Shown here: positions 12,001-32,321 of the stretch, one piece after another
Numbering within the stretch: position 1 is the first letter of the stretch
How the letters are laid out: each line of letters begins with the position of its first letter
Assembly (NCBI GenBank): GCA_017542305.1
Contig: JAFXXK010000026.1
Location: 1-59,398 of the forward strand
DNA length: 59,398 nucleotides
Direction of reading: 5' to 3'
From: a bacterium
Lineage (GTDB): Bacteria > Cyanobacteriota > Vampirovibrionia > Gastranaerophilales > Gastranaerophilaceae
Position numbers and translations under genes: made by a program
Notes under the pieces: model-generated
Told to the model about the DNA's origin: nothing
The model's database searches: none
The model's input: the letters and a program-made list of their open reading frames with translations, nothing else

Positions 12001-12563
12001 GTACAGCGGATGTACAATCTGCAAAAGCCGTTAAAGATGGTGAAGTAGCACACATAGAAGTCAGAAAAACCGATATGTACGATATCAAAAAGGCAATTGG
12101 TCTCGGAAATGACGGCGCATGCTGTACCGGTTTAGGCAAAAACTTCAATGAATGGTCAGCTCCTACATATATTATGAGCAAATGTATCGGTGCAATAGAA
12201 GTTGTTGACGGCAGCACATTCTGCGGAAATTCTATGATTTATATTGCATACGTTGACGGTAAACCTGCTCTTGTTATGGATAACATTGAGCTTAAACCTA
12301 AATATGCTTACAAAGATAAAATTCGTGATGCATTTATGGAATACGCAAAAAAACTTTGTGAAGAAATGGGCGTACCTGATTTACCGATATATGCAGGCCC
12401 GCACAGACATAAAATGAATATGACAATTTATCCGAAAGATACCCATACAATGCAGGTAGTCGGAAACAGCGGCGAACATAAAGTATATCTTGACTATGAC
12501 ATCGCAGGACACAGAATTGACGGAACAGAAACTGCCAAAATAGAAATGTACAGAATAAGATAA
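3..12563 (+). CDS. Giant multidomain protein (over 4180 residues, 5' end outside window), calpain-like and CheD-like domains
   Basis: One reading frame is open from the left edge to a TAA at 12563. The first usable start (TTG at 30) has no ribosome binding site and lies inside a module that recurs at 7371-7461, so the real start is upstream of the window. The protein is mostly alpha-helical, with no membrane span seen. In order: a short helical module (51-134), repeat B (1230-1551), a Cys-Cys module (3384-3860), a CheD-like region (about 4410-4860), repeat B again (5448-5757), a calpain-like protease (about 6400-7240), the first module again, a long Lys/Asn/Glu-rich helical region, a coiled coil (about 10850-11100), and a second Cys-Cys module at the C terminus. 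Size and modular composition suggest a secreted effector or toxin-like protein. That is inference; no secretion signal can be seen because the N terminus is missing. It ends just before a bidirectional terminator. Confidence 0.85.
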   Translation, partial: EVRTVLQEELLASDISDSDIPHQYRSLWQSCKTKARYILESLKGDMVKLPQNIKTKLTELVSEIRSIAKNSGAKVMADLERIGVDIETSYTPSETIPTEPVEVPTVSSRPHHPNPLDANYGIQYKSFIDTESLANGGQIEKRWLGDHYSLSRHTDSNGAITGYTYEFEYNGKTISITADKDGKLNRINSSFNEPQFSDETRHNVFDYICDAYYRSQHLADLPDEESFIQMCLDEVIDLASGKKKTPTLLMSEGDVIEKYMHIKGGSTILESLVKLAENIHQQRIQEYSNEKYTHMSLIGEKNGTPSEEVFIAKFKEQIETAKTLEELLELEQDIYLYKQAISANKAEYSDLEALLHNKKVEIGNNPDVQASKISPQEKLKIKNKILEICAKYEKYPVFATHVPDDFWEKFDYEHADRHIKHIEQIVKYDYDNGYQSVCKNGYFYSLEGAEVFDELANMFPIKAREGSVRTAFDLHSSALSVEEFNIAKARGLFDDPKYEKLTSFSIKEVVQLSDEQFNNPLLQTFMERGCIYISENAEINRLIDYATQKGLVSSYELSQLEKYILEISENNPDRIKYFVDKLCTLQSKDAIAEFYKYSSPEGGVIMVDPSENYTRNTLSYDNYFKYADSCVSDKYSGFGKNIGIISKLEEYQTLQRINGNTDYSWEQTYETQIARLRSIIEQSPERYVNDDSLWYVDEVAQAIRTCIKNGKINSDLLSKDKMLLRLKSLEEYDEDNLNSYIEVLDKFYENDIASIVSNNDVEGLEAIINGIRTSEVKQIAENFFHENAIQLALVSNIMDKETIDVLMRKRFDDAEEYLDSLTWFSSEDLNLYKSLCESLNVDGKPFLPTQKLEFIDLISAYENCNLSKAKMNQMIAENKVDLGELNRDLFNSVMQKCGLSDAEIAQIPLETLMKWDVKYVHLLIKEIQNNENNVKEVLQDMIRAVNAGKFEEFIADTSNKYGRTNAQTKAMFGKTNMNYDSWVKPPKEAEVKCVLKDQNLHALETKAGDIEEYINKLPQAVLKGFIKKQYPNFIQMVKDDAGNEVAKFVIPSDIKSSKAKLIELVQQLSDTSDKGQIAQVWNRAKGNLENADPKRVENARNTLTILDHLQEDLKAISEISEVKSSKTLNVTIKMWDRNPQKDIYQGNYSTCCIGMGNGNGSAMPHYIMDTAYNMIEIVDNVSGRPIGNALCYFAIVDGKRALIIDNIEINNGQKPSAEIGRTLRDKIAEYAANVAKAVTGREDTPIFMGDNYNDVPTNDLKAETHKFQFIGKVDSDNIYMDLYNGWTSTSNLTAKGKMLRLNATPSMKDVPAPSSETPATPASPKISVEQEDINYDNVRQDFVLGFGLSRTEEHFLNMVQEAQNVDECKYIISMIENADNSFIQRLQNPDKIIQSASEKMASLENPETKTQQMTTVVTPQKLIVASNSPVIFDKYKALSEAVDNPIYDFDNARFKDSANARVLEKVTPPQNEEVIEVSNYEKINGKYPGTIAATTTLDKCIYTDRMVQCASLVVVDRAHNTQSLIHCFPGDQTDCAKAVIEHILSGSNPEDLELSIVNGSEYATITTVQFLLDTVNDLAKGAKVELCNFPNWKELGISDRALLLKDGKLTCCDAREVTNKNTNPTENITYYERGEYLPQEGVRDYIVKLVKAAKTPEAVADLIDELQTKEEAIYLSYHIHNIAADNNFDTGPKEGLIRLIENKVRTLPEYNSQPETPAQNLTPTQQRYSQMDKEQLIAEYRKLALELNAGDLSALQKIGTLSEYLVKAGVDVHEALQDLTADKTPNKPLTKEEVDSKLSEILDDYEHEYNEVIKNFDYENANRHLQHLTMLTEHDSNRIYGASKNGYFSSKEGAEMFDELAKRFSAERTPGRISLLDQAMDALSVEDAQKLLRLGVLDNPNISPYRMGEIAELSEEEIVRLKQTSVYRAGLSYASDNDAINDVFIILNDVSRRGYTAHTLREIEAEIKSAANNSPEEIAKICDKIQCLDDKLDIFEKMFDYRHKDGDFDLQCFVDNIESIYELLHKRGTKLNDFMDDAFDGDIVDVMKAINKDNVHLVEKLVNVDGIDQMTLWHSLEFASTPERVHHVETIIDKIHSGEETAKALPYVKYSEPNPNVVQQKYAALPKYPVNEPLSELVGKTSQGQVVAVGNDTYINHNGNMVKLNMSAAMYEKLFPAYETACIQQGHDTGDCYFLSGVLYSFMQNSNAKIVLLQCIQQVGNDIVVTIPGYKDYPVTFKNGEIELGENHATTSLGNLMLEQTYAKARYASSNGIADANSVSADEAMKHIEGGIMSNTYDEFFPADSKQSISYTIGLNPARDEVPRNYENIEKEQMATVLDKYAGRTDVILSAGSGSRDAGYLPDYGVVPNHAYAIESIDKAARTVTIINPGNTLYRMTLSYDQFTEFFNILSVKELDTTPVSPSGKPQTKQPVIENISAAQNTTIEQNMTALSEMTLTPDALPQAYKDMWNSCQVKAKYIIESLGGNELTNSISAKCNELVADLETLAGVAKEDVAAQLSEIITSLKAGIQAAQPIIQPEAQPVVEEPKPTQLTTEENVTPAEEKYPVGELKENTPATEQEVRNILTEIGLSETRINEIVTPDKMPVLSQIAKPFYTIYKEVLSDNFKKIFGSDMITGVLEDILGNDRGLPTDSLFQNLIKYTNEENLKYLDLKFDNEYDEVTLEACKELLEDPKLPMLMEKLPMVYELFGKVGIFDVVDVLKKNTLDYITEENLLYIKEFNSKVPTDFRLGIADCKNINTYADDVIQDYIQTANEFARVCNGVSIELPATKDLAQITAQLKTVIRMVETYHIDLTCTSTTSLKLSQLADLANNPKLPQVVEIFKTVNPEVKRQIINDLVTGEISDINEIIAQIYEFKHSQFDIKQTSDLISRNSSLIDEGSVTTTKLKFMEIVNKNIKDYTFQLRLDDCKKLSDETELTETLANRYIAAINKFKSYDSVDRYSYRLYSYDKNYLDSGIKGFIENLEKLNTLLEQGLNLKTAGNNCQINFDDLMALILKTTPENVIKFINKIKPEAKDIAIEMANGGKITIDEKGAEFINALYDKYEHNKYKIRDVLECAQPNSQGVIDYDGVLELLNLIQPDANISLRRQCLNVHNGDYKGAKDFYNLVKDFSTEIYENAVKLEQTSFDEMIQAFNFVNENKVFEEKVRTKALESLFSVEHSMNVVQKLMNLRDNVYPNETLEELLNDYRYNYRYEMRQYADNTSVDDFIAKINFIKDEPELNYTFSGPKINAQMQVAMTDLPIEEFKALYNDLKAKYPEKYLTVMDYIANFNKDFALKIINKEGDINEHVIKMIAGVTPENISIVDELYSEHGMSLEELNKCKTYINKSNIQYIRELIADNEIPKETIVVVMPSINKNNAEGIKKLAKIKTLPAQYIYDIARQITTQNEASLLMLCNDPEFPKDKIADIASSLYNERIPLFKFLYEQKINPDCMSSILNNYSGNLEEVQQIITSGEFDSHKFLADYNTKYWRGIIDKGMTPDAIPEKLRQMLPAYAQARDPHIIENHQQLYEDAYNNRTLLKTGQDDLTDKDLDEVFLDLETVAALDIMGIGYLEAAFPLMIDVFEDLCEDIAKIKLSDENRKLLEETLTPAHSEEYIAMEKQLNALKKQMNELLGTEALNKIRELQKQKADIEEQIKQLNSKIALLDKDNPAIAGIRQQIRELQKQSKTLNGQAQSLYHTSPNAAQIKEYMNQISTLAKQMKNYIKEHSGLEPQDVVLKMRVIASLSNNNMVNDSEMTEFINLLRNPTPENQKIWDDKVNTKIYERIGVEYDEILAKKLDLLSCKYLSQMFVSCDNFFDNMKILVKHIKANPDKTVVEALDELPFNIETKRQLEALGIDYDKFTKVDKNSYTEVEVELNADEEKQNAIHNLEKDFNEEPFQNLPEEIRNGIIKRLNDIGVTLEKKYEEIFVGDGEANGTRDYLRLYRNGEPIKFEDMEKIMSVIKKEISSKQFWTVRNSDSTVEAARQHVYNHLIKLRTADVQSAKAVKDGEVAHIEVRKTDMYDIKKAIGLGNDGACCTGLGKNFNEWSAPTYIMSKCIGAIEVVDGSTFCGNSMIYIAYVDGKPALVMDNIELKPKYAYKDKIRDAFMEYAKKLCEEMGVPDLPIYAGPHRHKMNMTIYPKDTHTMQVVGNSGEHKVYLDYDIAGHRIDGTETAKIEMYRIR
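1230..1551 (+). repeat. Intragenic repeat B, copy 1
   Basis: This stretch of about 107 residues begins Phe-Asp-Tyr-Glu and contains the core KNGYF-S-EGAE-FDELA, then ALSVE and a QLSDEQ tail. It recurs at 5448-5757 in the same gene. The copies align without large gaps but are clearly diverged, so the duplication is old. No known family was recognised. Confidence 0.8.
3384..3860 (+). repeat. Cys-Cys module, copy 1 of 2 in the giant protein
   Basis: About 160 residues with the core YSTCCIGMG (Cys codons 3453 and 3456), then a beta-rich AIVDGKRALIIDNIEI strand pair and an amphipathic helix. A diverged copy closes the protein at 12051-12510. The order of strands and the long helix after the DNIE strand resemble a GNAT-type fold, but no acetyl-CoA loop is clear, so the function is unassigned. 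Confidence 0.75.
4410..4860 (+). other. CheD-like glutamine deamidase region inside the giant protein
   Basis: Within one beta-rich region a Cys (codon 4527-4529) follows a Thr by 6 residues and precedes a His (codon 4578-4580) by 17. The strands around them read CASLVVVD and SLIHCFPG. As I recall it, the catalytic set of Thermotoga CheD is Thr21, Cys27 and His44, which has the same spacing, and the surrounding strands fit that fold. CNF-type toxin deamidases share the fold. Activity and target are inferred, not shown. Confidence 0.5.
5448..5757 (+). repeat. Intragenic repeat B, copy 2
   Basis: Second copy of the module at 1230-1551. It shares the FDYE start, the HL/HI-rich helix, the KNGYF-S-EGAE-FDELA core, the ALSVE motif and an ELSEEE tail. 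It lies between the CheD-like and calpain-like regions of the giant protein. Confidence 0.8.
6400..7240 (+). other. Calpain-like (C2 family) cysteine protease domain inside the giant protein
   Basis: The motif GDCYFLSGV at about 6570 corresponds to the calpain signature GDCWLLAA, with the nucleophile Cys codon at 6576-6578 and upstream glutamines in place for the oxyanion hole. A His in NHAYAI (codon 7110-7112) and an Asn in IINPGN (codon 7164-7166) stand in the order and context of the calpain His (H-A/S-Y) and Asn (NPWG-like). All three catalytic residues are therefore present. No calcium-binding EF-hand or C2 segment was seen. Self-processing of the giant protein or cleavage of a target are both possible. 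Confidence 0.7.
12051..12510 (+). repeat. Cys-Cys module, copy 2 (C terminus of the giant protein)
   Basis: Repeats the module at 3384-3860. It has GACCTGLG (Cys codons 12120 and 12123), then YIAYVDGKPALVMDNIEL and a helix. The paired cysteines, the VDGK-AL--DNIE core and the C-terminal HKVYLDY strand match the first copy (DNIYMDLY). Retention of both cysteines in two diverged copies suggests they matter for function. Confidence 0.75.
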
Positions 12564-20840: not shown

Positions 20841-21947
20841 TTATGCTTTGCTCGCTCCCGCTTTTTCGATGATTTCTTTTTCAACGTTTGCAGGAACTTG
20901 TTCGTATTTCTGGAATTCCATAGAGAATGTTCCACGACCCTGAGTATTAGATCTCAAGTCGGTTGCATAACCGAACATATTTGCCAACGGAACAATTGCT
21001 CTAACAATTACATTACCTGTGTTACCTTGAGGTTCCTGACCTTCAACACGGCCTCTACGACGAGAGATGTCACCGATAATAGTACCTGTAAATTCATCAG
21101 GAATTTCGATTTCAACCTTCATCATAGGTTCTAAGATACAAGGAGAAGCTTTCTTACAACCTTCTTTGATAGCCATAGAACCGGCAATCTTAAATGCCAT
21201 TTCTGAAGAGTCGACTTCGTGGTAAGAACCATCATAAAGTTCAACTTTAACGTCAATCATCGGGAATCCTGCTAAGATACCGCCTTCAAGAGCTTCTTCC
21301 ATACCTTTTCTTGCAGGTTCGATATATTCTTTCGGAATAGCACCACCGACGATTTTGTTTTCGAATACGAATCCTGCATTTTCTTCAGCAGGCATAATTC
21401 TAACTTTACAATGTCCGTATTGACCTTTACCACCTGACTGACGGATAAATTTAGAATCCTGATCAGCGTTGCCTCTGATAGTTTCACGATATGCAACCTG
21501 TGGTTTACCGATATTAGCTTCAACTTTGAATTCTCTTAACATACGGTCAACGATGATATCCAAGTGAAGTTCACCCATACCTGAAATAATTGTCTGACCT
21601 GTTTCAGTATCAGATTTAACTCTGAATGACGGATCTTCTTCAGCAAGTTTTTGAAGAGCAATACCCATCTTATCCTGGTCAGCTTTTGTTTTCGGTTCAA
21701 TAGCAACAGAAATAACCGGTTCTGGGAAAGTCATTTTTTCTAAGATGATAGGATCTTTTTCATCACATAATGTATCACCTGTAGTAGTATCTTTCAAACC
21801 AACTGCTGCACAGATGTCACCGGCGTATACTTCATTTTCTTCAAGTCTCTGGTCTGCATACATACGAACTAAACGAGCAATACGTTCTTTCTTTCCGTTA
21901 GTAGCGTTAAGAACATGAACCTGAAGTAATAACACCTGAATATACAC
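20841..21947 (-). CDS. fusA: Elongation factor G, C-terminal part (domain II remainder, III-V), out of frame with the N-terminal part
   Basis: Homology to EF-G begins at about 21914 ([15 protein letters not shown]) and runs to the stop, covering domains III, IV ([13 protein letters not shown]) and V ([13 protein letters not shown]). The coding is continuous and conserved up to a normal C terminus. The nominal GTG start at 21947 gives a few non-homologous residues and has no ribosome binding site. It belongs to the same gene as 21907-22929, separated by an apparent 2-nt deletion near 21915 (see findings). Confidence 0.85.
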
Positions 21948-22929
21948 GTAGGAAAGTTAAACGACCTACAAACGGGTCTGTCATAACTTTGAATGCCAAA
22001 GCTGAGAACGGTTCATCATCTGATGAATGTCTTTCAACTTTAGTGCCGTCTTCTAATTCACCTTCGATAGCTTTTACATCAACAGGTGACGGCATATAAT
22101 CAACAACGTTGTTCAATAACAACTGAACACCTTTGTTTTTGAATGCTGTACCGCAAGTTACAGGAACGATTTTGTTGTTACATACAGCACGTCTTAAACC
22201 TGCTTTTAACTCGTCAACGGTGATTGAATCAGGATCTTCAAAATATTTTTCCATTAATTCATCATCTTCACCTGCGATAGCTTCAACCATTTCATCTCTC
22301 ATTTGTTTAGCTTTGTCAGCTAATTCAGCCGGAATTTCTTCTTCCTTAATATCTGTACCAAGGTCGTTAGTATAAATTTCAGCTTTCATAGTCATAAGGT
22401 CAACTAAACCGACAAATTTATCTTCAGCACCGATAGGTAACTGGATAGGAATGGCATTTCCACCTAATCTTGTTTTAATTTGTTCAACAACACGGAAGAA
22501 ATCTGCACCTGTTCTGTCCATTTTGTTTACGAATACCATACGGGGAACTTCGTATCTGTTAGCCTGTCTCCAAACGGTTTCAGACTGAGATTGAACACCA
22601 CCTACTGCACAGAATACAGCAACAACGCCGTCTAATACACGAAGTGAACGTTCTACTTCAATTGTAAAGTCAACGTGGCCGGGGGTGTCAATGATATTGA
22701 TTTGGTGTCCTTTCCATTCAGCAGTAACAGCTGCAGACTGGATTGTGATACCTCTTTCTCTTTCCTGTTCCATAAAGTCGGTTACAGCAGCACCGTCGTG
22801 AACTTCACCGAGTTTATGAGTTTTACCTGTATAAAACAGGATACGTTCAGTAGTAGTGGTTTTACCTGCGTCAATGTGAGCAGCAATACCAATATTTCTG
22901 ATTTTTTCCAATGGAGTTTTTCTAGCCAT
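21907..22929 (-). CDS. fusA: Elongation factor G, N-terminal part (GTPase domain and start of domain II), frameshifted
   Basis: EF-G drives ribosomal translocation by GTP hydrolysis. This part has G1 [15 protein letters not shown]3 DTPGHVDF and G4 NKMDRTGAD, and enters domain II ([17 protein letters not shown]). It then ends at a premature TAA (21907-21909) because the frame shifts at about 21915. Start ATG at 22929 follows AAAGGA. Together the two parts make a full-length EF-G of about 696 residues with one frame break. As fusA is essential, either the base call is wrong here, or another fusA copy exists, or the strain has a true lesion. Confidence 0.88.
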
Positions 22930-23124: not shown

Positions 23125-24246
23125 ATGTTTGAAAGTTATGAAAAAACTTTAGCTGATTTAAAAGATGCGTCACATCTGCGTTCAGTAAGTAATTTCGAGC
23201 GTAAAGAAGGCAAATATATTTACGTTAACGGGCAAAAATTATTGAATCTTTCGTCAAATAATTATTTGAATTTTGCGGATAATCAAGATATAACAAGAGA
23301 GTTTCTAAAAGATACCGATTGTAAATATACCTTTGGCAGCGCAAGTGCAAGACTTTTGACCGGAACTTTGCCGATTTATAAAGAGTTGGAAAATTTAATC
23401 AGTTCGCTTTTCGGGACCGGAAAAACTCTGATTTTTAACAGCGGTTACCACGCAAATGTCGGAATTAACAGTACTATTGCAGGGAGCGGTGACGTAATTT
23501 TTTCGGATAAATTGAATCATGCAAGTATTATTGACGGGATGCAGCTGTCTAAAGGAAAATTTTTCCGCTATAAACATAATGATATAGAAAATCTTGAGAC
23601 ACTTCTGAAACGTGAGCGGACAAATTTTAAAAATGCGGTAATTGTTTCCGAAAGTGTTTTTTCAATGGACGGCGATATTGCAGATTTAAAAAAACTCGTT
23701 GAATTGAAGAAAAAATATAATTGTATTTTGGTAATAGATGAAGCCCATGCATTCGGAGTTTTCGGTAAAAAAGGTCTCGGTGTATCAGAAGAATTAGGCA
23801 TAATAAATGATGTCGATTTAATTGTCGGAACGTTTGGCAAAGCTATCGGCTCTATGGGTGCATTTGCAACAGGAAATGACGTTTTGATAAACTATTTAAT
23901 AAACAAAGCCCGTTCGTTTATTTTTTCTACTTCCCTGCCGCCTGTAAATATTGCATTTACAAAATGGATAATAGAAAAAAAACTGCCATATACTTACGAA
24001 AAAAGGATGAATATGCTTTCACTCGGCAAAAAAATGGGAAGCGAAAGTCATATTGTACCTTACATTGTGGGCGAAAACGACAAAACCGTAAAACTGAGTG
24101 AAATCCTGTTTCAGAACGGATATTTTACACTTCCTATTCGCCCTCCGACGGTACCGTCGGGAACTTCTCGTCTGCGTCTGTCCCTAACAGCCGACATAAC
24201 AGAGGAAGATTTGATAAAACTGAATGAAATATTACAGTATCGGTAA
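23125..24246 (+). CDS. bioF: 8-amino-7-oxononanoate synthase (biotin biosynthesis)
   Basis: A PLP enzyme of the alpha-oxoamine synthase family, condensing pimeloyl-ACP (or CoA) with L-alanine in the first ring-forming branch of biotin synthesis. It shows SNNYL, GSASARLLTG, FNSGYHAN, the PLP-contacting DEAHAFGVFG and the Schiff-base Lys in GTFGKAIGS. 373 residues, typical. Kbl (threonine pathway) is a close paralogue, but bioG and bioC just downstream support BioF. No bioA, bioD or bioB lies in the window. Confidence 0.9.
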   Translation: MFESYEKTLADLKDASHLRSVSNFERKEGKYIYVNGQKLLNLSSNNYLNFADNQDITREFLKDTDCKYTFGSASARLLTGTLPIYKELENLISSLFGTGKTLIFNSGYHANVGINSTIAGSGDVIFSDKLNHASIIDGMQLSKGKFFRYKHNDIENLETLLKRERTNFKNAVIVSESVFSMDGDIADLKKLVELKKKYNCILVIDEAHAFGVFGKKGLGVSEELGIINDVDLIVGTFGKAIGSMGAFATGNDVLINYLINKARSFIFSTSLPPVNIAFTKWIIEKKLPYTYEKRMNMLSLGKKMGSESHIVPYIVGENDKTVKLSEILFQNGYFTLPIRPPTVPSGTSRLRLSLTADITEEDLIKLNEILQYR

Positions 24247-24325
24247 TTTGTAAAATTAAATAAATTACATGCAAAAAAATTTTTTTACGAGATTTATATT
24301 GATAAACAGCCGGATTGGAGAAATT

Positions 24326-24796
24326 ATGAAAACAGATATGATACAAGCTTACAACCCCGAATTTACCGCAAGATGTAATTTTAGAGGGGATATAGATTCG
24401 CTCAGCATAGATCAGTTAAGAGAAATTCTTATACAATGCCGAAAAATCGGTACTATGCGTGATCAGATTGATATATTTATTCCTAACAAGAAAACTCATC
24501 CGGGTGGTATTATCCCTATGGCAGGTTATGTTGATGGTGAAATAAGAGCATTTATCGGTAAATATTCTCATGGCAAGGTTTATGAAGGAATTATAGAAGC
24601 TGTAAAGTTTGCTCAAAAAACGTTATTCCCGAAACATTTCCATAAAGAACCAATTTCGCTTAAATATCCAAACAAACAACCGTACAACCACAAAAAACAT
24701 TCCGAGCATAATAAAACCGATGTTATACCAAGACTTAAACACATCAACCATAAAGAATTTGATTTTGAAATTTCCGAACACCACAAAAAATTTTAA
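24326..24796 (+). CDS. Unknown protein with His/Lys-rich tail inside the biotin cluster
   Basis: 156 residues. N-terminal motif NPEFTARCNFRGD, a compact alpha/beta middle, then a C-terminal third very rich in His and Lys (HFHKEP, HKKHSEHNK, EHHKKF), which could bind metal or nucleic acid. Start at 24326 chosen for GGAG at 6-nt spacing; an in-frame ATG at 24269 lacks a site. It sits between bioF and bioG, but a separate promoter follows it, so a biotin role is doubtful. Confidence 0.75.
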   Translation: MKTDMIQAYNPEFTARCNFRGDIDSLSIDQLREILIQCRKIGTMRDQIDIFIPNKKTHPGGIIPMAGYVDGEIRAFIGKYSHGKVYEGIIEAVKFAQKTLFPKHFHKEPISLKYPNKQPYNHKKHSEHNKTDVIPRLKHINHKEFDFEISEHHKKF

Positions 24797-24817
24797 ATCA
24801 TTAAACATTAATTGATA

Positions 24818-24826
24818 TGGTATAAT
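24818..24826 (+). promoter_or_regulatory. Extended -10 promoter of bioG-bioC
   Basis: TGG-TATAAT forms an extended -10 element with no good -35. The start would be about 24833, giving a leader of about 25 nt before bioG. Confidence 0.55.
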
Positions 24827-24857
24827 AATTTTGTACAATTTAAGAATTGAGAGTATT

Positions 24858-25538
24858 ATGCAATATCATTGGCTGAACAAAAAAAACAACAGTAATCTGA
24901 TAATATTCTTTTGCGGTTGGAGTTTTGATTATAAACCGTTTGAACGCTTGGCATGCAATGACAATGACGTACTTGTCGTATATGATTACGGAGATATCGG
25001 AACAGACAATGAAGATATTATAAAATCATTTTCCGATTATAAATCTTTTACGCTGATAACCTGGTCAATGGGAGTTTATATAGCGTATTTACTGAAAAAC
25101 ACTTTACCGAATTTTGATAAAAAAATCGCAATAAACGGTACTCCATATCCTGTTCACGATGAATGGGGAATCCCGGTTAAGACGTTTGACTTAACGCTAA
25201 AATATGTTGATACGGGATTGCAGGGCAAGTTTCAGAAAAATTTATTCAAACGTCCTGAAGATTTTGAAAAATACCTTGAAACTCCGGTTGAAAGAACCAT
25301 AGAAAACCAAAAGACCGAGCTTATTGTGCTTGATAATTTCATTAGAAATCGTGTAATCAATTACGAAAGATTTTATGATTATGCTATAATCAGTGATACG
25401 GATAAAATTATTCCGACCCGTAACCAAAAAAGCTGTTGGGAAAATTTTGAAACACCTTATAAAGTTTTGAATAGCGGGCATTTCCCGTTTTATGAATTTA
25501 ACAGCTGGGAAGAAATTCTAAATGCAGACAGACCCTAA
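24858..25538 (+). CDS. bioG: Pimeloyl-ACP methyl ester esterase, BioG type (DUF452)
   Basis: Alpha/beta hydrolase that demethylates pimeloyl-ACP methyl ester and so ends the BioC-protected chain elongation. The nucleophile elbow reads TWSMGVY (Ser in W-S-x-G), and FFCGWSFDYKPF near the N terminus and the His in SGHFPFY are typical of BioG. About 226 residues, the usual size for BioG and shorter than BioH. Start at 24858 has GAGAG upstream. It overlaps bioC by 17 nt, so translation is coupled, and the pair catalyses entry and exit of the pimelate pathway. Confidence 0.85.
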   Translation: MQYHWLNKKNNSNLIIFFCGWSFDYKPFERLACNDNDVLVVYDYGDIGTDNEDIIKSFSDYKSFTLITWSMGVYIAYLLKNTLPNFDKKIAINGTPYPVHDEWGIPVKTFDLTLKYVDTGLQGKFQKNLFKRPEDFEKYLETPVERTIENQKTELIVLDNFIRNRVINYERFYDYAIISDTDKIIPTRNQKSCWENFETPYKVLNSGHFPFYEFNSWEEILNADRP

Positions 25539-26253
25539 AACAATAAAAAAACAGTTCAGAAAAAGCATCGGCAAATATGATGAAAATGCCGTTGTGCAGA
25601 ATATTATTGCCGAACGAATTGCTAAAATTTTATCGGAATATGAGTTTGAAAATGTTTTGGAAATCGGTGCAGGCTCGGGGCTGCTTACGGCACAAATTGC
25701 AAAACACATACGGTACAATGAATATTATGCAAACGATTTGGTTGAAAAATCAGAAGTTTATGTAAAAAAATATATCCCCAATGTTAAATTTTTCTCAGGC
25801 GATTTCAGAAAAATCAAATTTAATCAGAAATTTGATTTAGTGGTTTCTAACGCTGTATTCCAATGGTATGAGAATTTGGATAAGATTTTTGAGCAATGCA
25901 AAAATTTACTGAATCCCAACGGGGTATTGGCATTTTCGACATTTTCTCCTGATAATTTCAGGGAAATAAAAGCTATTACAGGATTATCACTTGAATATAA
26001 AACAGAGAAAGAAATAATATCTGTTTTGAAGAAAGATTTTGAAATAATTACGTCAGAAACCACTGAGCATAAAATGACTTTTGACAATCCGTTAAAAATA
26101 TTGGCACATATGAAAAATACGGGTGTAAATTCGTTATCTGACACAAAATGGGGAGTCAAAGAGGTTAAAGATTTTTGTGACAAATACAAAACACAATTCC
26201 CCGATTTGACACTAACCTATGCCCCGATAATTATAGCTGCCAAAAAAATATAG
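25522..26253 (+). CDS. bioC: Malonyl-ACP O-methyltransferase
   Basis: SAM-dependent methyltransferase that masks the carboxylate of malonyl-ACP so that fatty-acid synthase can build the pimeloyl chain. Motif I is LEIGAGSGLLT, followed by the acidic AND, then VVSNAVFQWYEN, a BioC-typical Q-W pair. 243 residues, family norm. It starts inside the end of bioG. The N terminus (KKQFRKSIGKYDENA-VQ) matches the BioC pattern F-R-A--Y---A-VQ. Confidence 0.9.
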   Translation: MQTDPKTIKKQFRKSIGKYDENAVVQNIIAERIAKILSEYEFENVLEIGAGSGLLTAQIAKHIRYNEYYANDLVEKSEVYVKKYIPNVKFFSGDFRKIKFNQKFDLVVSNAVFQWYENLDKIFEQCKNLLNPNGVLAFSTFSPDNFREIKAITGLSLEYKTEKEIISVLKKDFEIITSETTEHKMTFDNPLKILAHMKNTGVNSLSDTKWGVKEVKDFCDKYKTQFPDLTLTYAPIIIAAKKI

Positions 26254-26838: not shown

Positions 26839-27510
26839 CTATCTTTTTGCCGCAAGTTTGGCTCTTAAAATTGCGGCATAATCACGAAATTCCGCTTTCT
26901 TATCCATTTTGCCAAAATTTGTAGAATGTATTCTTCTGTCAGTTGAAACAATATCAATTTTTTTTATTTTTAAATTTGCCGAATCCATTTTAGACTGCCA
27001 TTCTATAATTTCGCCTGCCCGAAGAGTTTCACTAAACAAACCTATTTTATCGAAAGTATCTTTACGCATCAAAATAGCACCGGTAAATAATCCCCAATAC
27101 GGCTCGGATTTTATCGGAGTTTTTTCCCGTTCTTCTTCGGAAAGTTCAGGTGAATAAAAATCCTGAACTTTTGCTTCTACTGCGTAAATATCATTTTCTG
27201 AAGTTATTTCCTCATAGAGTTTTTGAAGTACTCCGTCCCTCATAATATCATCGTGGTCATGGAATAAGATATATTTGCCTGCTGCAATTTTTAATCCGTT
27301 GTTTTTAGCGATAACGGGACCTTTTGATGTATCATGCCGGATAATTTTACAACCGTATTTTTCTGCAATTTTAACCGTATCATCATCAGAACAGTCATCA
27401 ACAACAATTATCTCAACATCCATATTTTGTTGGAGTATTCCGTCAAGCGCCTGACTAAGGTATTTGCTGCCGTTTTTAACAGGTATGATTACGGAAATTA
27501 AATCGTTCAT
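26839..27510 (-). CDS. Family 2 glycosyltransferase (last gene of a five-gene operon)
   Basis: GT-A fold enzyme transferring a sugar from a nucleotide-sugar. N-terminal ISVIIPVKNGSKYL, IIVVDDCSDDDT and the metal-binding FHDHDD motif (a DXD variant). 223 residues, short, with no membrane segment. Its ATG overlaps the upstream stop by one base (TAATG), so it is co-translated with the second glycosyltransferase. Acceptor unknown; it could act on a polysaccharide or on a modified peptide or protein made by the operon. Confidence 0.9.
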   Translation of the reverse strand: MNDLISVIIPVKNGSKYLSQALDGILQQNMDVEIIVVDDCSDDDTVKIAEKYGCKIIRHDTSKGPVIAKNNGLKIAAGKYILFHDHDDIMRDGVLQKLYEEITSENDIYAVEAKVQDFYSPELSEEEREKTPIKSEPYWGLFTGAILMRKDTFDKIGLFSETLRAGEIIEWQSKMDSANLKIKKIDIVSTDRRIHSTNFGKMDKKAEFRDYAAILRAKLAAKR

Positions 27511-28475
27511 TATTTTTTCCTTCTTATATAACTTATTGCAACATTTTTTGAAAATTTTGAGATGTAATCGTCATAACTATTGGTTTCAGATATATTTTTA
27601 CAAAAGAATTTGTCAACATCAGTATAAATATTACTGTTCAAAATATACCCGCCCGCTTTCAGAAAATATTCTTTAAAAGCTGAATAGATATGTTCATTAT
27701 CAATACTAAATAACGGCATTGTATAATATATTTTTATATTTCTGCCAAGCAAACCGTGTTCTTTATAATAATCATATATCAATCCGAGAATATTGATAAA
27801 TTTATCACTATCCTGTCTGTGATTTGCAGTAATGGAAGTGTCATTTTTTCTGTAATAATAAGACGAACCGTTAAAGAAATAGACTTTTTGGGCATAGGCA
27901 AAAGAAACATAATGGAAAAAATTATCCTCATATATATAGCCTTCAGGAAATCTGATATTATACTTTTTTATTAAATTCGCATTATACAATTTACAACAAA
28001 GTCCGGAGAATATATTATGTGTATCTTTTTCCGTATCAATGTATGAATTATCAGAAATTGCAAGTTGTCCCGGCTGAAAATTATACGGGAAAAATTTGTC
28101 ATTATGAACAGAAATAACATTTCTGTTTATAATAATATCCGAACAAGTTTCATCCATAGTTTTTAACATTATTTCTAAATAATCATTATCTATCCAGTCA
28201 TCACTGTCAAGAAAATAGATATAATTACCTTCTGCAATATCAAGAGCATAATTTCTTGCGGCAGAAACACCTTTATTTTGTTCAAAATTGATAACTTTTA
28301 TTCGCTTATCTCTATCGGCATAATCCTGTAAAATTTTTAGTGAGTTATCTTCGGAAGCATCATTCACACATATAATTTCAATATCTTTTAATGCCTGACA
28401 AATCAAGCTGTCCATACATTTTGGCAGATATTCTTCATTATTATATACGGGTACAATAACAGAAATCTCTGTCAT
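27510..28475 (-). CDS. Family 2 glycosyltransferase
   Basis: 321 residues, GT-A fold: EISVIVPVYNNEEYL, IICVNDASEDNS and YFLDSDDWID with the DXD motif, and a basic C-terminal tail. It is not closely similar to its neighbour, so the two probably add different sugars. It starts 2 nt after the PqqD-like gene stop and overlaps the next gene by one base. Confidence 0.92.
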   Translation of the reverse strand: MTEISVIVPVYNNEEYLPKCMDSLICQALKDIEIICVNDASEDNSLKILQDYADRDKRIKVINFEQNKGVSAARNYALDIAEGNYIYFLDSDDWIDNDYLEIMLKTMDETCSDIIINRNVISVHNDKFFPYNFQPGQLAISDNSYIDTEKDTHNIFSGLCCKLYNANLIKKYNIRFPEGYIYEDNFFHYVSFAYAQKVYFFNGSSYYYRKNDTSITANHRQDSDKFINILGLIYDYYKEHGLLGRNIKIYYTMPLFSIDNEHIYSAFKEYFLKAGGYILNSNIYTDVDKFFCKNISETNSYDDYISKFSKNVAISYIRRKK

Positions 28476-28477
28476 AT

Positions 28478-28954
28478 TTACTTCTTCAACTCCATCTTGG
28501 CTTCACGGCGTGCAACATCTTCTTTATCTTCATTTAGTGAAGATTTTTCAGGTGACCAGCCTTCTTCTTCTTTTACTTCGTGTATCGGGTCGGCAAGCAA
28601 AAGCTCCTGAACATCTTTATATTCCGCTACAGTAGGAATAAATCCGTCTTCTGCAGCAATTGCTTCATCTATGGATACTTCAATGTTATTTTGAACATCT
28701 GAATCAGGAATAATTATTCCGTTTTTGGTAAGAAATTCCATATATTCATTGAATTTACTTTCCGCATCTTTGTTCCACGTTAATAATTTTTCGAGAATGT
28801 TTTCTGCTGAAACTCCGTTAATAAGATTTTCATACACTTCTGTACCTAATTTATTCATGCCGTAATATATACCCGTTTCGGAATTTATTATAATGGCAAT
28901 TCCGTCTGCAACATCCGCAAACATTTTTTCTTCATTTAATTTATAATTAGTCAT
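28478..28954 (-). CDS. PqqD-family protein (RiPP recognition element) with acidic C-terminal extension
   Basis: Residues 1-90 fit the PqqD fold: DVADGIAIIINSETGIYYGMN, LGTEVYENLINGVSAENILEKL, which is the winged-helix element that binds leader peptides in many RiPP pathways. Residues 95-158 form an acidic, probably disordered tail with the motif LLLADPIHEVKEEEGW. PqqD proteins are usually about 90 residues, so the tail is extra and could be a fused substrate or docking segment (inference). It overlaps the HPr-kinase-like gene by 8 nt. Confidence 0.75.
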   Translation of the reverse strand: MTNYKLNEEKMFADVADGIAIIINSETGIYYGMNKLGTEVYENLINGVSAENILEKLLTWNKDAESKFNEYMEFLTKNGIIIPDSDVQNNIEVSIDEAIAAEDGFIPTVAEYKDVQELLLADPIHEVKEEEGWSPEKSSLNEDKEDVARREAKMELKK

Positions 28955-29984
28955 CCTTATACTCCTTTAAAAATCTCTTTAAATACTCTACATTTTTGTA
29001 TATATCTCTGCATAAATACATCTTATAATATTTATAATTACTAATCATATCTATCAATTTTTTTATGGTTTTTGAATCGTACATATCTTTCATCTGTATA
29101 ACCGTCGAATGAACCATCTGTGTAATTGCACTGCCTTTTTCCTGTTTTGAACATTCAACAATTGACGGATTTTCTTCTTTTGAAAATTCAAGTGTCATAC
29201 AAAATTTTACAGGATATTTCTTCTTAAATTGATCGTGCATATTCGCAATATTAAATACATATTTATCTTTTCTGGCATTATTTGAAACAAATCTTGCTCC
29301 TGAGAGTTTATCATACATCTCATTATACATTTTCGGAGATAACGTAATGATAGAATATATCGGATACGCAAATAATTTATCATCCTCTTTTTCAATGGTT
29401 AAATAATCATCAGAAACATATTCAAACCCACTCAGCAAAGATAATACCGTTAGTGTTGATTTTCCTCTTTGTCCCCTTGCACAGAATAAAATACCTTTAT
29501 TATCAAAACCTATACATGCACCATGAACAAGAGCCGTTGAATCTGTTTTTAATATTTTGTTCAGAATATAAACAAAAATATGACCTTCTTTTACAAATTC
29601 TTCCGGTTCAAGATTGTTTACTCCGTAAAAGTATGTTTCTTCCTGCGGAACGCATAAAGTTGTAGTATTTTCCGTATACATGATGTGTGTTATACCCGTA
29701 TCGGAATCCGCATCAGAAACAAATAACTTTTTATTTTCATGTATATGTTCTATATCGTTTTCCTGCCATAAAATTATGGTTCCGTCATATTTCCAGGATT
29801 TTTCAAGTAATGTATAAGTAAGCTGTTTTTCTATATGCGGAATAAATAAATCCGAATAACATATCAGACGGACAATTTTCACACCCAAATCCAGATAAAG
29901 CGTTTTCTCATAAGAACTGTTTGCTTTAATATATTCAAGCAATTTTTTATCTGATATTTTTATCTTTTTGTCTTTATCTGTCAT
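28947..29984 (-). CDS. HPr-kinase-like P-loop protein
   Basis: 345 residues. The C-terminal half has a P-loop (LFCARGQRGKSTL) preceded by a His in VHGACIG and followed by YVSDDYLTIE, the layout of the HprK/P catalytic domain, though without the rest of a normal HPr kinase. HprK-like proteins next to PqqD and NTP_transf_5 nucleotidyltransferases recur in RiPP-type clusters; that association is established knowledge. It overlaps the upstream nucleotidyltransferase by 4 nt (ATGA). Likely an ATP-dependent kinase of peptide or sugar; substrate unknown. Confidence 0.75.
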   Translation of the reverse strand: MTDKDKKIKISDKKLLEYIKANSSYEKTLYLDLGVKIVRLICYSDLFIPHIEKQLTYTLLEKSWKYDGTIILWQENDIEHIHENKKLFVSDADSDTGITHIMYTENTTTLCVPQEETYFYGVNNLEPEEFVKEGHIFVYILNKILKTDSTALVHGACIGFDNKGILFCARGQRGKSTLTVLSLLSGFEYVSDDYLTIEKEDDKLFAYPIYSIITLSPKMYNEMYDKLSGARFVSNNARKDKYVFNIANMHDQFKKKYPVKFCMTLEFSKEENPSIVECSKQEKGSAITQMVHSTVIQMKDMYDSKTIKKLIDMISNYKYYKMYLCRDIYKNVEYLKRFLKEYKDD

Positions 29985-31168
29985 CCTATCAACCGTTGTT
30001 TTTCAAGTACTTCTTTTGCTAATTTTGGATTTTTACTTATTGTTTTCCGCCTATATAAAACATATTGAGGTCGGAATTTAAAATAATATATTAAATCATG
30101 CCACAAATTTTTAAATATATCACCGAAATTTAGAGAGTGGCTTCTTTTACGTAAACTCTTGATAAACCATTCATTATAGAGATACAAAATACTTCTTTCG
30201 CGAAACTCTTCAGTAAACATTTCAGGCAGTTTAGCGGAAACAAATCTGTTCAAAAACTCAATGGCAACCGCCACTTGCGGTTCCGTATTTGTTTTTATTG
30301 CATTTTGTCTTACTATATTCCAATCAAAATCCGGCTTTAAATTGATCAGATACATACTGTCAATAACAGAATATAAAATACTTTGAAAACTTGTTATTCT
30401 CGTCATATTTTTAACCAGATTTACAAGTAAAAGAAACATCATATCTTCAGGGCATGGCACATAAATATCATTGACATTAAAAACCGTTTCACTGTGTGCT
30501 CTTTTATAAATATCTTCATTGAAAGAATTTACCACATCGGATTGCATATCAAGCTTATGGTGAATATCCAATACATTAATATTTGCGTTTGGATCAATCA
30601 AATCTATACTGTGCTTACATTCCATATATTTATAACCGAAATCCAATGCTATCTTTTTTGCATTTTCATAATCTTTTGACGGAATAAGAATATCAATATC
30701 ACTCATTATTCTCGGAAATTCCGGATGATAATGTCTGAAAGCTCCACCTTTCATAATCAAAATATCAATATTTGCAGCTTTTAATGCCGTACAAACTCTT
30801 TTAAAATGGGACATCAAATTCAGATTACGAAATCTGTAATACTTTAATATACCGTTTAATCTTGGTTCTATATATACCGGATAATTTAATTCGGGATGAT
30901 TTTTCATAAAATAAGAGAGCATTAATGCCTTATGACCGCCCTCTGCCTCAATATCCCATTCTTCAATAAATTTATCCAAATCAGCCTGAGAAACATTCTC
31001 TTTCAAAAAAAGATTTATAAGTTTTTCATCATTTTTGGAAATATATTTATTTGCAAAAAAATCAACAACCTGCTGCAAAATAAAATCAACATCGGAATGC
31101 TTATTATCAAAATAAGCTTTCTTGATGTAATATTTAATGTCTCGCTTCCAATTTGGTACCGATTTCAT
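29981..31168 (-). CDS. Nucleotidyltransferase-family protein (NTP_transf_5-like)
   Basis: 395 residues. The core MKGGAFRHYHPEFPRIMSDID gives the nucleotidyltransferase signature G-x(n)-D-x-D (SDIDILIP), followed by VLDIHHKLD, which may hold the third acidic residue. Mostly helical flanks, no membrane span. First gene of the operon, with its own predicted leaderless promoter. NTP_transf_5 proteins are common companions of PqqD and HprK-like proteins. Reaction unknown (AMP or other nucleotide transfer is inferred). Confidence 0.78.
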   Translation of the reverse strand: MKSVPNWKRDIKYYIKKAYFDNKHSDVDFILQQVVDFFANKYISKNDEKLINLFLKENVSQADLDKFIEEWDIEAEGGHKALMLSYFMKNHPELNYPVYIEPRLNGILKYYRFRNLNLMSHFKRVCTALKAANIDILIMKGGAFRHYHPEFPRIMSDIDILIPSKDYENAKKIALDFGYKYMECKHSIDLIDPNANINVLDIHHKLDMQSDVVNSFNEDIYKRAHSETVFNVNDIYVPCPEDMMFLLLVNLVKNMTRITSFQSILYSVIDSMYLINLKPDFDWNIVRQNAIKTNTEPQVAVAIEFLNRFVSAKLPEMFTEEFRERSILYLYNEWFIKSLRKRSHSLNFGDIFKNLWHDLIYYFKFRPQYVLYRRKTISKNPKLAKEVLEKQRLIG

Positions 31169-31204: not shown

Positions 31205-31230
31205 ACACATATATATTTATAATAACCTCA

Positions 31231-31267
31231 AAACAAAATCCGCCCATATAGCCGGCGGATTTTGTTT
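31231..31267. terminator. Strong terminator upstream of the five-gene operon
   Basis: A perfect 14-bp stem (aaacaaaatccgcc / ggcggattttgttt) with a 9-nt loop. It ends the minus-strand pair at 31306-32177 and separates it from the operon downstream. Confidence 0.9.
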
Positions 31268-31305
31268 ATCTATATAAAATCACATTAAAATAGCAAATTC
31301 CCAAA

Positions 31306-31665
31306 TTAGCTCAATGCCATTAAAGCTTTTACTGAGCGTGCGTTATCCCTTACTTCTTCTTCTGAGTGGTTGTTTACTGTGTCTTCTAAAATTGTCATTG
31401 CTTCTGTTTTATCTTCCAATGAAAGTAATTCATTGATAGTAGTCATAGCAACAACTGTGCTAAGGTCATTAATACCTTTACCCTGATTTGAAATAACTAC
31501 TGAAAGAGAATCGTGAACATTTTTTCTGACCAATGCTCTGGAAGTTAATTCTCTTACTCTGTCTATTGCAGAGTTTGTACCAACTTCAGTTAATACGTTG
31601 ATAGACTCAGGGTCTGTGTGTATTGATAATGCTTCAATAATTTTTTCTACTTTGTTCATATTCAT
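31306..31665 (-). CDS. Small helical (HEAT-like) protein, unknown
   Basis: 119 residues, all-helical by pattern, with three helix pairs around TDPESINVLTEVG, VAMTTINELLSLEDK and EVRDNARSVKALM, reminiscent of HEAT repeats. AGGAGG 10 nt before the ATG. It is the second gene of a pair, 14 nt after its partner, and is closed by the terminator at 31231-31267. Function unknown. Confidence 0.78.
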   Translation of the reverse strand: MNMNKVEKIIEALSIHTDPESINVLTEVGTNSAIDRVRELTSRALVRKNVHDSLSVVISNQGKGINDLSTVVAMTTINELLSLEDKTEAMTILEDTVNNHSEEEVRDNARSVKALMALS

Positions 31666-31679
31666 AACTTAAATTCCTC

Positions 31680-32177
31680 CTATGCCGCAATACTTAAACT
31701 GTTGGTTAGTTCTGTTCTTAATGTATCAACCGGCATTGATGCGTACATTTTTACTTCTTTTGCATAATGAGCAGCTTCCCATTGAGATTTAATAGAATTT
31801 GTTAAATCTGTAATACCGGGAACTCTTGTTTCCTGCAAGAAATGCCATGCACTTGTAATTTCGTTTTTAACTCTGCCGCAAAATGCAGTAATGTTTTCAA
31901 TACCTTTTCTGAATGTCGGGAATGCATCACCTATAGAACCTACAAGAGCTGATGCCATTCTCTTAATTTTTGATGCGGATGGAGTTGTTCCGCCTGTAAA
32001 ACTTGTTGTATCAAATACGTCTGCTGTTAAAACATCTACTTTCATACCTGATGTTGCAAACGGATTGTAAGTTGTACCCGTAGTAACCTGATTCGATGGT
32101 CTGTTTGTAGTTGTTTCGTATTTACTGCCGTTGAAAAGACGGGGTAAAACACTTCCGATTTTAAATGAATCTGCCAT
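31680..32177 (-). CDS. Unknown protein with Thr-rich N-terminal region
   Basis: 165 residues: about 75 Thr/Ser/Asn-rich, probably disordered residues that include SFTGG, then helical segments (KRMASALVGSIGDAF, NEITSAWHFLQE). Start at 32177 chosen for AAAGGA 8 nt upstream; an in-frame start at 32201 would lie across the ribosome binding site. No signal peptide. Cotranscribed with the HEAT-like gene. Confidence 0.72.
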   Translation of the reverse strand: MADSFKIGSVLPRLFNGSKYETTTNRPSNQVTTGTTYNPFATSGMKVDVLTADVFDTTSFTGGTTPSASKIKRMASALVGSIGDAFPTFRKGIENITAFCGRVKNEITSAWHFLQETRVPGITDLTNSIKSQWEAAHYAKEVKMYASMPVDTLRTELTNSLSIAA

Positions 32178-32321
32178 TCTAATAATCCTTTCTTTCGTCA
32201 ATATGTAATATCTCTACACATAATAGAATAGCACACGATTTTTTATCGCCATCAACCTTTTGGAGGATTCTTTAAAAAATTTTTTGTACTTTTGTTGTAG
32301 ATTTTATGATAAACTTTTACT

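What the first reader, a model, noticed from the sequence alone, without database searches (positions are those of the whole stretch)
26839..31168. Candidate peptide-modification (RiPP-like) operon: nucleotidyltransferase, HPr-kinase-like, PqqD-like, two GT2 enzymes
Five genes overlap or abut (4 nt, 8 nt, gap 2, 1 nt), with one leaderless promoter and a terminator in front. PqqD-type recognition elements with HprK-like and NTP_transf_5 proteins mark RiPP clusters. Joined to two different glycosyltransferases, but with no visible protease, exporter or separate precursor, this looks like an undescribed variant that could make a phosphorylated or glycosylated peptide or glycan.
Basis: partly seen in the sequence, partly recalled or inferred. 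Interest (0 to 1): 0.8.

Follow-up and report, generated by a model that had tools for sequence, protein, structure and literature searches.

The report
Peptide-guided glycosyltransferase operon in gut bacteria
This is a conserved set of four genes (a kinase, a nucleotidyltransferase, a peptide-binding protein that carries its own recognition tail, and a dedicated sugar transferase), seen mostly in gut and rumen bacteria of several phyla, and it looks like an undescribed way to put phosphate and sugars on a protein or peptide.

Summary
The operon is real and more than chance. Its core recurs in genomes of about seven phyla by record title: NTP_transf_5, an HprK/PEPCK-fold kinase, a lasso-type RRE ("PqqD-like") and, recognised here, the small GT2 at 26839-27510 (GT2b). 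In 97 relatives GT2b (E 1e-30) occurs in exactly the 6 genomes with a strong PqqD match and in none of the other 91. Other glycosyltransferases between PqqD and GT2b vary.

A candidate substrate is built in: the PqqD-like protein ends in a segment (EYxDAQELL[LFYI]ADPIHEVxEExGWxP) that is its most conserved part and holds the [Y/L]xxP motif that lasso-type RREs bind. A second RRE is fused to the kinase in 34 of 75 kinase ORFs, never with DPIH.

The kinase, NTase and RRE module is known from paeninodin-type lasso peptides and LPPs. The built-in tail and dedicated GT2b are new; no B2-type peptidase passed its cut-off in 23 genomes. Best reading: RRE-guided phosphorylation and glycosylation of the tail as carrier. 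Against it: 10 of 74 tails have no Ser/Thr after the motif, and AlphaFold does not place the tail.

The parts
29981..31168 (-). NTP_transf_5 nucleotidyltransferase, 395 aa; core gene 1
   Evidence: PF14907 81.4 bits over cut-off 31.2; K140 G141, R153, M155, D157, D159, D201 and H203 invariant or kept in 90% or more of 39 rows (one of these rows, L069:8857-9969, is wrongly the kinase)
28947..29984 (-). HprK/PEPCK-fold kinase-like protein, 345 aa; core gene 2; no fused second RRE in this genome
28478..28954 (-). PqqD-like RRE with C-terminal tail, 158 aa; core gene 3
28547..28624 (-). conserved tail segment, residues 111-136, with [LFYI]xxP at residues 120-123 (28586-28597)
   Evidence: mean column entropy 0.57 against 1.92 for residues 35-85, in 63 sequences non-redundant at 85%; DPIH in 74 of 74 rows
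27510..28475 (-). GT2a, variable-part family 2 glycosyltransferase, 321 aa
   Evidence: PF00535 134.6 bits; the gene at this place is a GT2 in 49 of 58 proteins scanned, the window's included, but of differing sequence
26839..27510 (-). GT2b, dedicated small family 2 glycosyltransferase, 223 aa; core gene 4
   Evidence: PF00535 105.2 bits; match at E 1e-30 in the 6 relatives with a strong PqqD match and in none of the other 91; R192, R193, H195 and N198 invariant in 30 rows
31231..31267 (-). terminator-like hairpin in front of the operon, most likely ending the upstream gene 31306-31665
   Evidence: 31215-31285 folds at -23.6 kcal/mol against -10.5 (sd 2.53) in shuffles, z -5.18

Best explanation
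The operon encodes an RRE-guided phospho- and glycosyl-modification system. The PqqD-like protein is a lasso-type RRE joined to its own leader-like tail. The tail's [LFYI]xxP motif is held by an RRE: its own, that of a second molecule, or the tail-less RRE fused to the kinase in many relatives. The kinase phosphorylates the presented substrate, the NTP_transf_5 enzyme and its partner GT2b put a nucleotidyl or first sugar group on it, and the variable glycosyltransferases extend the glycan. The substrate most likely is the tail of the PqqD-like protein, which thus works as a protein carrier or primer for a variable glycan. Shown by sequence and models: the four-gene core, the folds, the conserved catalytic motifs, the conserved tail, the tail-less duplicate. 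Inferred: each catalytic step, the order, the acceptor, and the fate of the product.
For: Core linkage: within 77 loci the kinase is in 75 and NTP in 69. Of the 8 without NTP, 5 were searched genome-wide and 4 have it elsewhere. GT2b is in 48 of 77 loci and, of 15 further loci searched genome-wide, 13 have a strong copy outside the fetched piece. GT2b co-occurs with a strong PqqD match in 6 of 6 and 0 of 91 relatives, the six being in six genera. In L047, L050 and L057 GT2b and a second NTP gene sit side by side on the other strand. Tail: the most conserved part, although the scan patterns were N-terminal (the tblastn confirmation used the whole protein). P-3 residue L, F, Y or I, as in YxxP-to-LxxP recognition sequences (PMC12710340 section 7). 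The pocket Phe of PbaB1 (F83) aligns to residue 71, F in 69, Y in 3 and L in 2 of 74 (the pairing with the numbers of PMC13381572 section 8 is mine). The kinase-fused RRE lacks DPIH in 34 of 34. The kinase keeps His, Lys, Asp, Asp residues that I map to the set needed in lasso-tailoring kinases. The window's tail has Ser at P+15, where the LPP motif has its phosphorylated Ser. Precedent: the kinase phosphorylates a peptide Ser and the NTase is needed for hexoses on it in pseudomycoidin (PMC8498205 and PMC9266682 passages).
Against: The acceptor is not shown. 22 of 74 tails have no Ser at P+15 or P+16, and 10 of 74 have no Ser or Thr at all after the motif (six Bacteroidales-type and four Elusimicrobia rows), so a Ser/Thr-phosphorylated tail cannot be the rule in all lineages. 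AlphaFold gives residues 111-140 only 58-67 pLDDT, and I had no coordinates to test docking. The motif departs from the lasso and LPP consensus at P+2 (His, not Leu/Val). Near-invariance over phyla is unlike a natural-product core. L074 keeps PqqD (tail without GW) and GT2b, but no NTase was found in its genome and no kinase in its locus. L042 and L077 have the trio but no strong GT2b. In LPPs deletion of the NTP transferase changed nothing detectable. No glycan, export route or phenotype is known.
Confidence: 0.42

Rival explanations
1. Scaffold: the tail of the PqqD-like protein is a docking peptide that gathers kinase, NTase and GT2b, and the acceptor is another molecule, such as a growing cell-surface glycan or its lipid carrier. 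The kinase and NTase then cap or decorate a glycan.
For: Tails without any Ser/Thr (10 of 74). The neighbours are polysaccharide-type genes: of 126 genes between PqqD and GT2b 67 match GT2, 17 GT8, 9 GT4-type and 4 Caps_synth. An ABC2_membrane permease gene lies upstream of the kinase in L069 and of the NTP gene in L059, a Polysacc_synt gene lies in L081, and in the L069 genome the unlinked NTP gene lies beside an ABC ATPase gene.
Against: That ABC ATPase has no match at E 1e-40 in any of the 6 relatives with a strong PqqD match. The closest characterised systems act on peptides. The tail has the form of an RRE ligand and the kinase-fused RRE has lost it.
Confidence: 0.27
2. Ordinary RiPP pathway: a separate precursor peptide, peptidase and exporter lie elsewhere in the genome; the RRE presents that precursor and the tail is only structural.
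For: RRE, HprK-like kinase and NTase are the shared set of paeninodin and LPP clusters (PMC13381572 section 6). The window genome is only 78% complete. ORFs under 70 aa were not examined in the 77 loci, so a short precursor could have been missed.
Against: No lasso B2-type peptidase over cut-off in 23 of the 41 positive family genomes, 22 of the 23 at least 90% complete. The tail is found in those 23 genomes only in the PqqD-like gene, apart from one fragment in G048 and two weak matches. A merely structural role does not explain why the tail, of low model confidence, is more conserved than the fold.
Confidence: 0.2
3. Activated-donor route: the kinase and NTase make a nucleotide-activated small molecule (kinase gives X-P, NTase gives NDP-X) used by GT2b; the RRE protein is a regulator of the enzymes.
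For: Kinase plus nucleotidyltransferase is a common way to make NDP-sugars, and PEPCK-fold kinases acting on small molecules exist (both recalled, from no call).
Against: Does not explain why an RRE with kept groove residues and an LxxP ligand is the third core gene.
Confidence: 0.08

Closest known systems
LPP (linear polyphosphorylated peptide) RiPP family of Bacillota (PMC13381572, 2026; sections 6, 7, 8 and passages seen)
   Same: Discrete RRE, HprK-like kinase and an uncharacterised NTP transferase; the first clusters were found inside capsular polysaccharide loci; recognition motif of the same YxxP kind.
   Different: LPPs have separate precursors (YxxPxVLxHQxIxFETxxS), an SpI-like peptidase and an MsbA-like exporter. 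Here no separate precursor was seen, the recognition motif is in the RRE protein, a dedicated GT2b is part of the core, and the record titles are of other phyla.
Paeninodin/pseudomycoidin-type lasso peptide clusters (PMC8498205 and PMC9266682, passages seen)
   Same: HprK-like kinase K and nucleotidyltransferase N with an RRE; K and N give a phosphoglycosylated peptide.
   Different: No B2 peptidase over cut-off (0 of 23 genomes), no separate precursor seen; the cyclase was not searched for by itself.
Rumen lasso clusters of Butyrivibrio fibrisolvens (PMC7533575, passages seen)
   Same: Nucleotidyltransferase, HPr kinase, PqqD and a family 2 glycosyltransferase are reported in or near lasso clusters of rumen bacteria.
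   Different: Those clusters have lasso A, B, C and D genes and are Firmicutes; whether their GT2 is a GT2b homologue was not tested.
RRE-glycosyltransferase fusions listed by RRE-Finder and its successor (PMC7470986 and PMC12710340, passages and one section seen)
   Same: RRE domains joined to PF00535 glycosyltransferases were noted as possible new RiPP types.
   Different: Here the RRE is separate from the glycosyltransferase genes or fused to the kinase; an apparent RRE-GT2 frame in L039 runs through unknown residues and is not counted.
HprK-related kinase A and B (TIGR04352, TIGR04355) and SynChlorMet cassette (TIGR04248, TIGR04249)
   Same: HprK-like and PqqD-like proteins; that these form cassettes is recalled and comes from no call beyond the model names.
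   Different: The window kinase scores 22.7 and 25 bits against cut-offs of 200; the SynChlorMet models give 13.7 bits (PqqD-like) and 11.9 bits (kinase) against 100 and 125.
TbiB1 / TfuB1 lasso RREs
   Different: The window protein has about 70 further C-terminal residues with the conserved tail.

Membership tests
RRE / PqqD-like peptide-binding domain | winged-helix RRE fold | tested here: met
RRE / PqqD-like peptide-binding domain | score over Pfam PF05402 cut-off | tested here: not met
   18.8 bits against 23.4; the same model finds nothing in the whole own genome; so a divergent member by fold, not by the Pfam model
HprK/PEPCK-fold kinases | fold, P-loop and His-Lys-Asp-Asp set | tested here: met
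HprK-related kinase A / B (TIGR04352, TIGR04355) | score over NCBIfam cut-off of 200 | tested here: not met
   22.7 and 25 bits
NTP_transf_5 (PF14907) | score over Pfam cut-off | tested here: met
   81.4 against 31.2 bits
Lasso peptide cluster | B2 leader peptidase (PF13471) | tested here: not met
   over cut-off in 0 of 23 positive genomes; sub-cut-off matches in 3 of them
Lasso peptide cluster | macrolactam cyclase (Asn synthase-like) | not tested
   no genome search was run; not among the up to 25 families shown for the neighbours
LPP family | RRE, HprK-like kinase and NTP transferase together | tested here: met
   kinase in 75 and NTP in 69 of 77 loci; of the 8 without NTP, 5 were searched genome-wide and 4 have it
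LPP family | separate precursor with YxxPxVLxHQ leader | tested here: inconclusive
   no recurrent small gene noticed near the trio, but ORFs under 70 aa were left out and the leader motif was not searched for
LPP family | SpI-like signal peptidase | not tested
   no search was run; not among the up to 25 families shown
LPP family | MsbA-like exporter | tested here: inconclusive
   ABC exporters of about 600 aa, two of them cut by the contig end, lie within 3 kb after GT2b in 5 of 77 loci (L034, L044, L055, L062, L066), by reading of sequence except L055 (ABC_tran); none seen by reading in the window

The most novel reading that the evidence does not exclude
The PqqD-like protein is a self-presenting glycan primer: an RRE that carries its own leader and acceptor tail, which the kinase, NTase and GT2b prime with a phospho- or nucleotidyl-linked first sugar, after which interchangeable glycosyltransferases build a strain-specific glycan on it. 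That would be peptide-primed glycan assembly evolved from RiPP parts, shared sideways among gut bacteria.
Probability: 0.25. Interest if true: 0.9.

Novelty: new variant of a known kind. Interest (0 to 1): 0.62.

Why it matters
The role of the kinase, NTase and RRE module in capsule-type loci is an open question: the LPP paper states that the biological roles are unknown, and its authors speculate that the NTP transferase needs a partner encoded outside the core cluster (PMC13381572). Here a partner candidate is named: GT2b, which goes with the module in 6 of 6 positive and 0 of 91 other relatives, though two more distant loci, L042 and L077, lack a strong copy. The fused tail gives a ready substrate for a test, and the system links RiPP-type recognition to variable glycan clusters in uncultured bacteria of several phyla.

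Tried and rejected
Considered and dropped: (1) A PqqD-GT2 fusion in L039: the frame runs through unknown residues (XX), so it is not counted; the 465-aa frame of G105 was not looked at further. (2) Synteny test for an empty site: the flanking genes 25522-26253 and 31680-32201 are in 12 and 13 of 13 genus genomes, but on different contigs in the relatives that have both, so no empty site could be shown. No PqqD match is found in the 12 same-genus relatives. (3) Base composition: operon G+C 0.307 against a mean of 0.336 (sd 0.018, lowest 0.289) for pieces of that size in the window, not telling. (4) The ABC exporter as a fixed part: the ABC ATPase of the L069 genome has no match at E 1e-40 in the positive relatives. 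(5) PHROGs gave only two weak matches to families of unknown function. (6) Single-sequence searches of solved structures gave no convincing match for the kinase, and for PqqD only a weak one to TbiB1 (E 0.07) below two stronger but unrelated-looking rows; the profiles did better. (7) Whether the tail docks on its own RRE: the model came without coordinates; residues 91-110 are placed with confidence, 111-140 are not. HprK entries are not among the 50 rows shown; that is no evidence against an HprK fold. (8) Transfer between phyla: the kinase tree puts the Bacteroidota rows (starred) and three Pseudomonadota rows (not starred) among Gastranaerophilales rows, but these are draft or metagenome genomes and at least one title is doubtful, so transfer is likely, not shown. 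(9) Papers: nine searches of the held library found no paper on this operon; most subscription journals are not held, and the pseudomycoidin paper is not held.

Rows left out: alignment A7 has the window and 73 of 77 loci (L039 with unknown residues; L086, L091, L092 cut by contig ends). A8 holds 61 and A9 39 of the kinase and NTP proteins. The tail and peptidase searches were given 23 of the 41 positive family genomes.
Full report
What is there. Five minus-strand genes stand as described, with overlaps and gaps of 4, 8, 2 and 1 nt. A 14-bp hairpin in front folds far better than shuffled sequence (z -5.18), but it lies just past the end of the upstream gene 31306-31665 and most likely serves that gene. 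The leaderless promoter is a guess: promoter-like sites are as common as in shuffles (36 against 33.5). The window lies in a 1.7-Mb genome, 78% complete. The nearest rows of the kinase tree are rumen genomes, two of the five nearest being titled Gastranaerophilales.

Distribution. A scan of genome contigs with two N-terminal PqqD patterns gave 77 loci. By record titles they are Gastranaerophilales/Melainabacteria, Bacteroidales, Alphaproteobacteria and one Rickettsiales, Desulfovibrio, Elusimicrobia, Spirochaetes and a Planctomycetota bin, many from rumen or other gut samples. Within these loci the kinase is in 75 and NTP_transf_5 in 69. Of the eight loci without NTP in the fetched piece, five were searched genome-wide and four have it elsewhere. 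L036, without a kinase in the locus, lies at a place of G125 that has one on another contig. In the window's family 41 of 383 genomes match the PqqD profile and 39 match the kinase profile, two of them weakly; the 37 with a strong kinase match are all PqqD-positive. The four PqqD-positive genomes without a kinase match are two with only tail fragments (G153, G211), one weak match (G388) and one short-tailed copy (G397, the same place as L074).

A fourth core gene. The 223-aa GT2b (26839-27510) has matches at E 1e-30 in 6 of 97 relatives, and these are exactly the six with a strong PqqD match (G000, G023, G027, G028, G031, G048, in six genera); none of the other 91 has one (the seventh genome, G089, has only weak PqqD matches, best 5.7e-4). 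By my arithmetic the chance of such an exact overlap is about 1 in 10^9 if genomes were independent, which they are not fully. Among the 77 loci GT2b is found in 48, one of them cut by the contig end (42 of the 54 with at least 5 kb downstream). Of 15 loci that lack it and were searched genome-wide, 13 have a strong copy elsewhere (257 bits or more), L042 and L077 do not; the 14 others were not searched. Scores of small GT2s separate cleanly: 135 bits or more for GT2b, 89 or less for others. In L047, L050 and L057 a GT2b and a second NTP gene form their own pair on the other strand.

The variable part. Of the 48 loci, 40 have GT2b complete, downstream and not directly next to PqqD; in 39 of these (L073 was lost for want of a PqqD call) 1 to 9 same-strand ORFs lie between PqqD and GT2b, and eight loci also have opposite-strand ORFs there. 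Of 126 of these 128 genes scanned, 67 match GT2, 17 GT8, 10 aldo/keto reductase, 9 GT4-type, 7 DUF4422, 5 FkbM methyltransferase, 5 radical SAM and 4 Caps_synth. In L074 and L085 GT2b follows PqqD directly. The gene right after PqqD is a GT2 in 49 of 58 scanned, the window's included; ten +1 neighbours on the opposite strand had been left out. The picture is a fixed head and a mostly fixed GT2b around exchangeable sugar genes, as in glycan loci.

The tail. The PqqD-like protein has some 70 residues after the RRE. Residues 111-136 are its most conserved part: mean column entropy 0.57, against 0.66 for residues 1-34, 1.92 for 35-85, 2.34 for the linker 86-110 and 1.65 for 137-158, in 63 non-redundant sequences. 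DPIH is in 74 of 74 rows and GWx[PG] in 72. The scan patterns were N-terminal, so the tail was not selected by them, though the tblastn confirmation used the whole protein. The residue three before the Pro is L, F, Y or I. That is the form of the recognition sequence bound by PqqD- and lasso-type RREs, YxxP varying to LxxP (PMC12710340, section 7 read), and Y/WxxP is needed for binding in the LPP and lasso RREs (PMC13381572, section 8 read). The groove positions are nearly all hydrophobic; position 71, which aligns to the pocket Phe of PbaB1, is F in 69, Y in 3 and L in 2 of 74. In 34 of 75 kinase ORFs a second RRE is fused to the kinase. None of the 34 has DPIH, and the copy ends at about that point. 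The simplest story is duplication, with one copy keeping the tail and the other freed to hold it. In 23 of the 41 positive genomes the tail was searched for alone: it is in the PqqD-like gene and otherwise only in one fragment (G048) and two weak matches.

How it may work. In pseudomycoidin the HprK-like kinase phosphorylates a Ser and the nucleotidyltransferase is needed for one or two hexoses on it (passages of PMC8498205 and PMC9266682). In LPPs the kinase adds several phosphates to Ser-3 of the core, while deletion of the NTP transferase changed nothing detectable in the heterologous host and the authors think it needs an outside partner (PMC13381572, section 7 read). I propose that here the tail is the presented substrate, GT2b is the partner of the NTase, and the variable enzymes extend the glycan. 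The window's own tail has Ser at P+15 and P+16; P+15 is where the LPP motif has the Ser that is phosphorylated (my count). 52 of 74 tails have a Ser at one of the two.

What speaks against it. 22 of 74 tails lack that Ser and 10 have no Ser or Thr after the motif, so either the acceptor is another residue, or in those lineages the tail only docks the enzymes. The model leaves residues 111-140 unplaced. L069 (Bacteroidia) and L059 (Spirochaetaceae) have an ABC permease gene upstream, and in the L069 genome the NTP gene lies beside an ABC ATPase gene, which would fit a glycan as the product; but that ATPase has no match at E 1e-40 in the window's genome or the other five positive relatives. I therefore keep the scaffold reading as a serious rival.

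Known or new. The module is of a known kind. LPP clusters share RRE, kinase and NTase and were first seen inside capsule loci, and rumen lasso clusters with nucleotidyltransferase, HPr kinase and GT2 genes are in print (PMC7533575 passages), as are RRE-glycosyltransferase fusions (PMC7470986 and PMC12710340 passages). LPPs differ in having separate precursors, an SpI peptidase and an MsbA-like exporter, none of which was seen in the window operon; of peptidases only the lasso B2 type was searched for in genomes (0 of 23 over cut-off). PMC10352776, on Bacteroidales RiPP clusters, was seen in passages and showed nothing like this system in them. I found no paper on the tail-bearing RRE or on GT2b in the held library. 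Verdict: a new variant of a known kind, with a concrete test for an open question.

Noticed in passing
window 30-12563 (+): A single open frame of 4177 aa with internally similar stretches and a GDCYFLS motif of the calpain-like (C2) cysteine protease kind (recalled); possibly a giant secreted or effector-like protein.
   Followed up: no
window 20841-22929 (-): Elongation factor G (named by reading) is split over two overlapping frames, 21907-22929 and 20841-21947, so a frameshift or an assembly error in that region.
   Followed up: no
L023 / L013 (contig JAISCP010000069): The record title says Heliobacteriaceae, but a contig of the same length and match is in G031, a genome of the window's own family, so the title is probably wrong.
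   Followed up: partly
L026, L031, L037, L043, L047, L050, L057, L058, L064, L090: Transketolase-like genes (named by reading, not scanned) split in two halves recur in these ten clusters; aldo/keto reductases and radical SAM genes are common in the variable part. They may make or alter an unusual sugar.
   Followed up: no
L180 (G429:C9:189000-201000), 4840-8168: In a Bacteroidia genome an NTP_transf_5 gene and a second similar gene (no Pfam match) flank an ABC ATPase gene with a long C-terminal part, on another contig than the kinase-PqqD locus.
   Followed up: partly
L074 (same place as G397:C28): Apparently degenerate locus: PqqD with a tail lacking GW next to GT2b; no NTase found in that genome and no kinase in the locus.
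   Followed up: partly
window 23125-26253 (+): Biotin-synthesis-like genes (the last passes the BioC cut-off) lie next to the operon on the other strand; the BioC gene is in 12 of 13 genomes of the genus.
   Followed up: no
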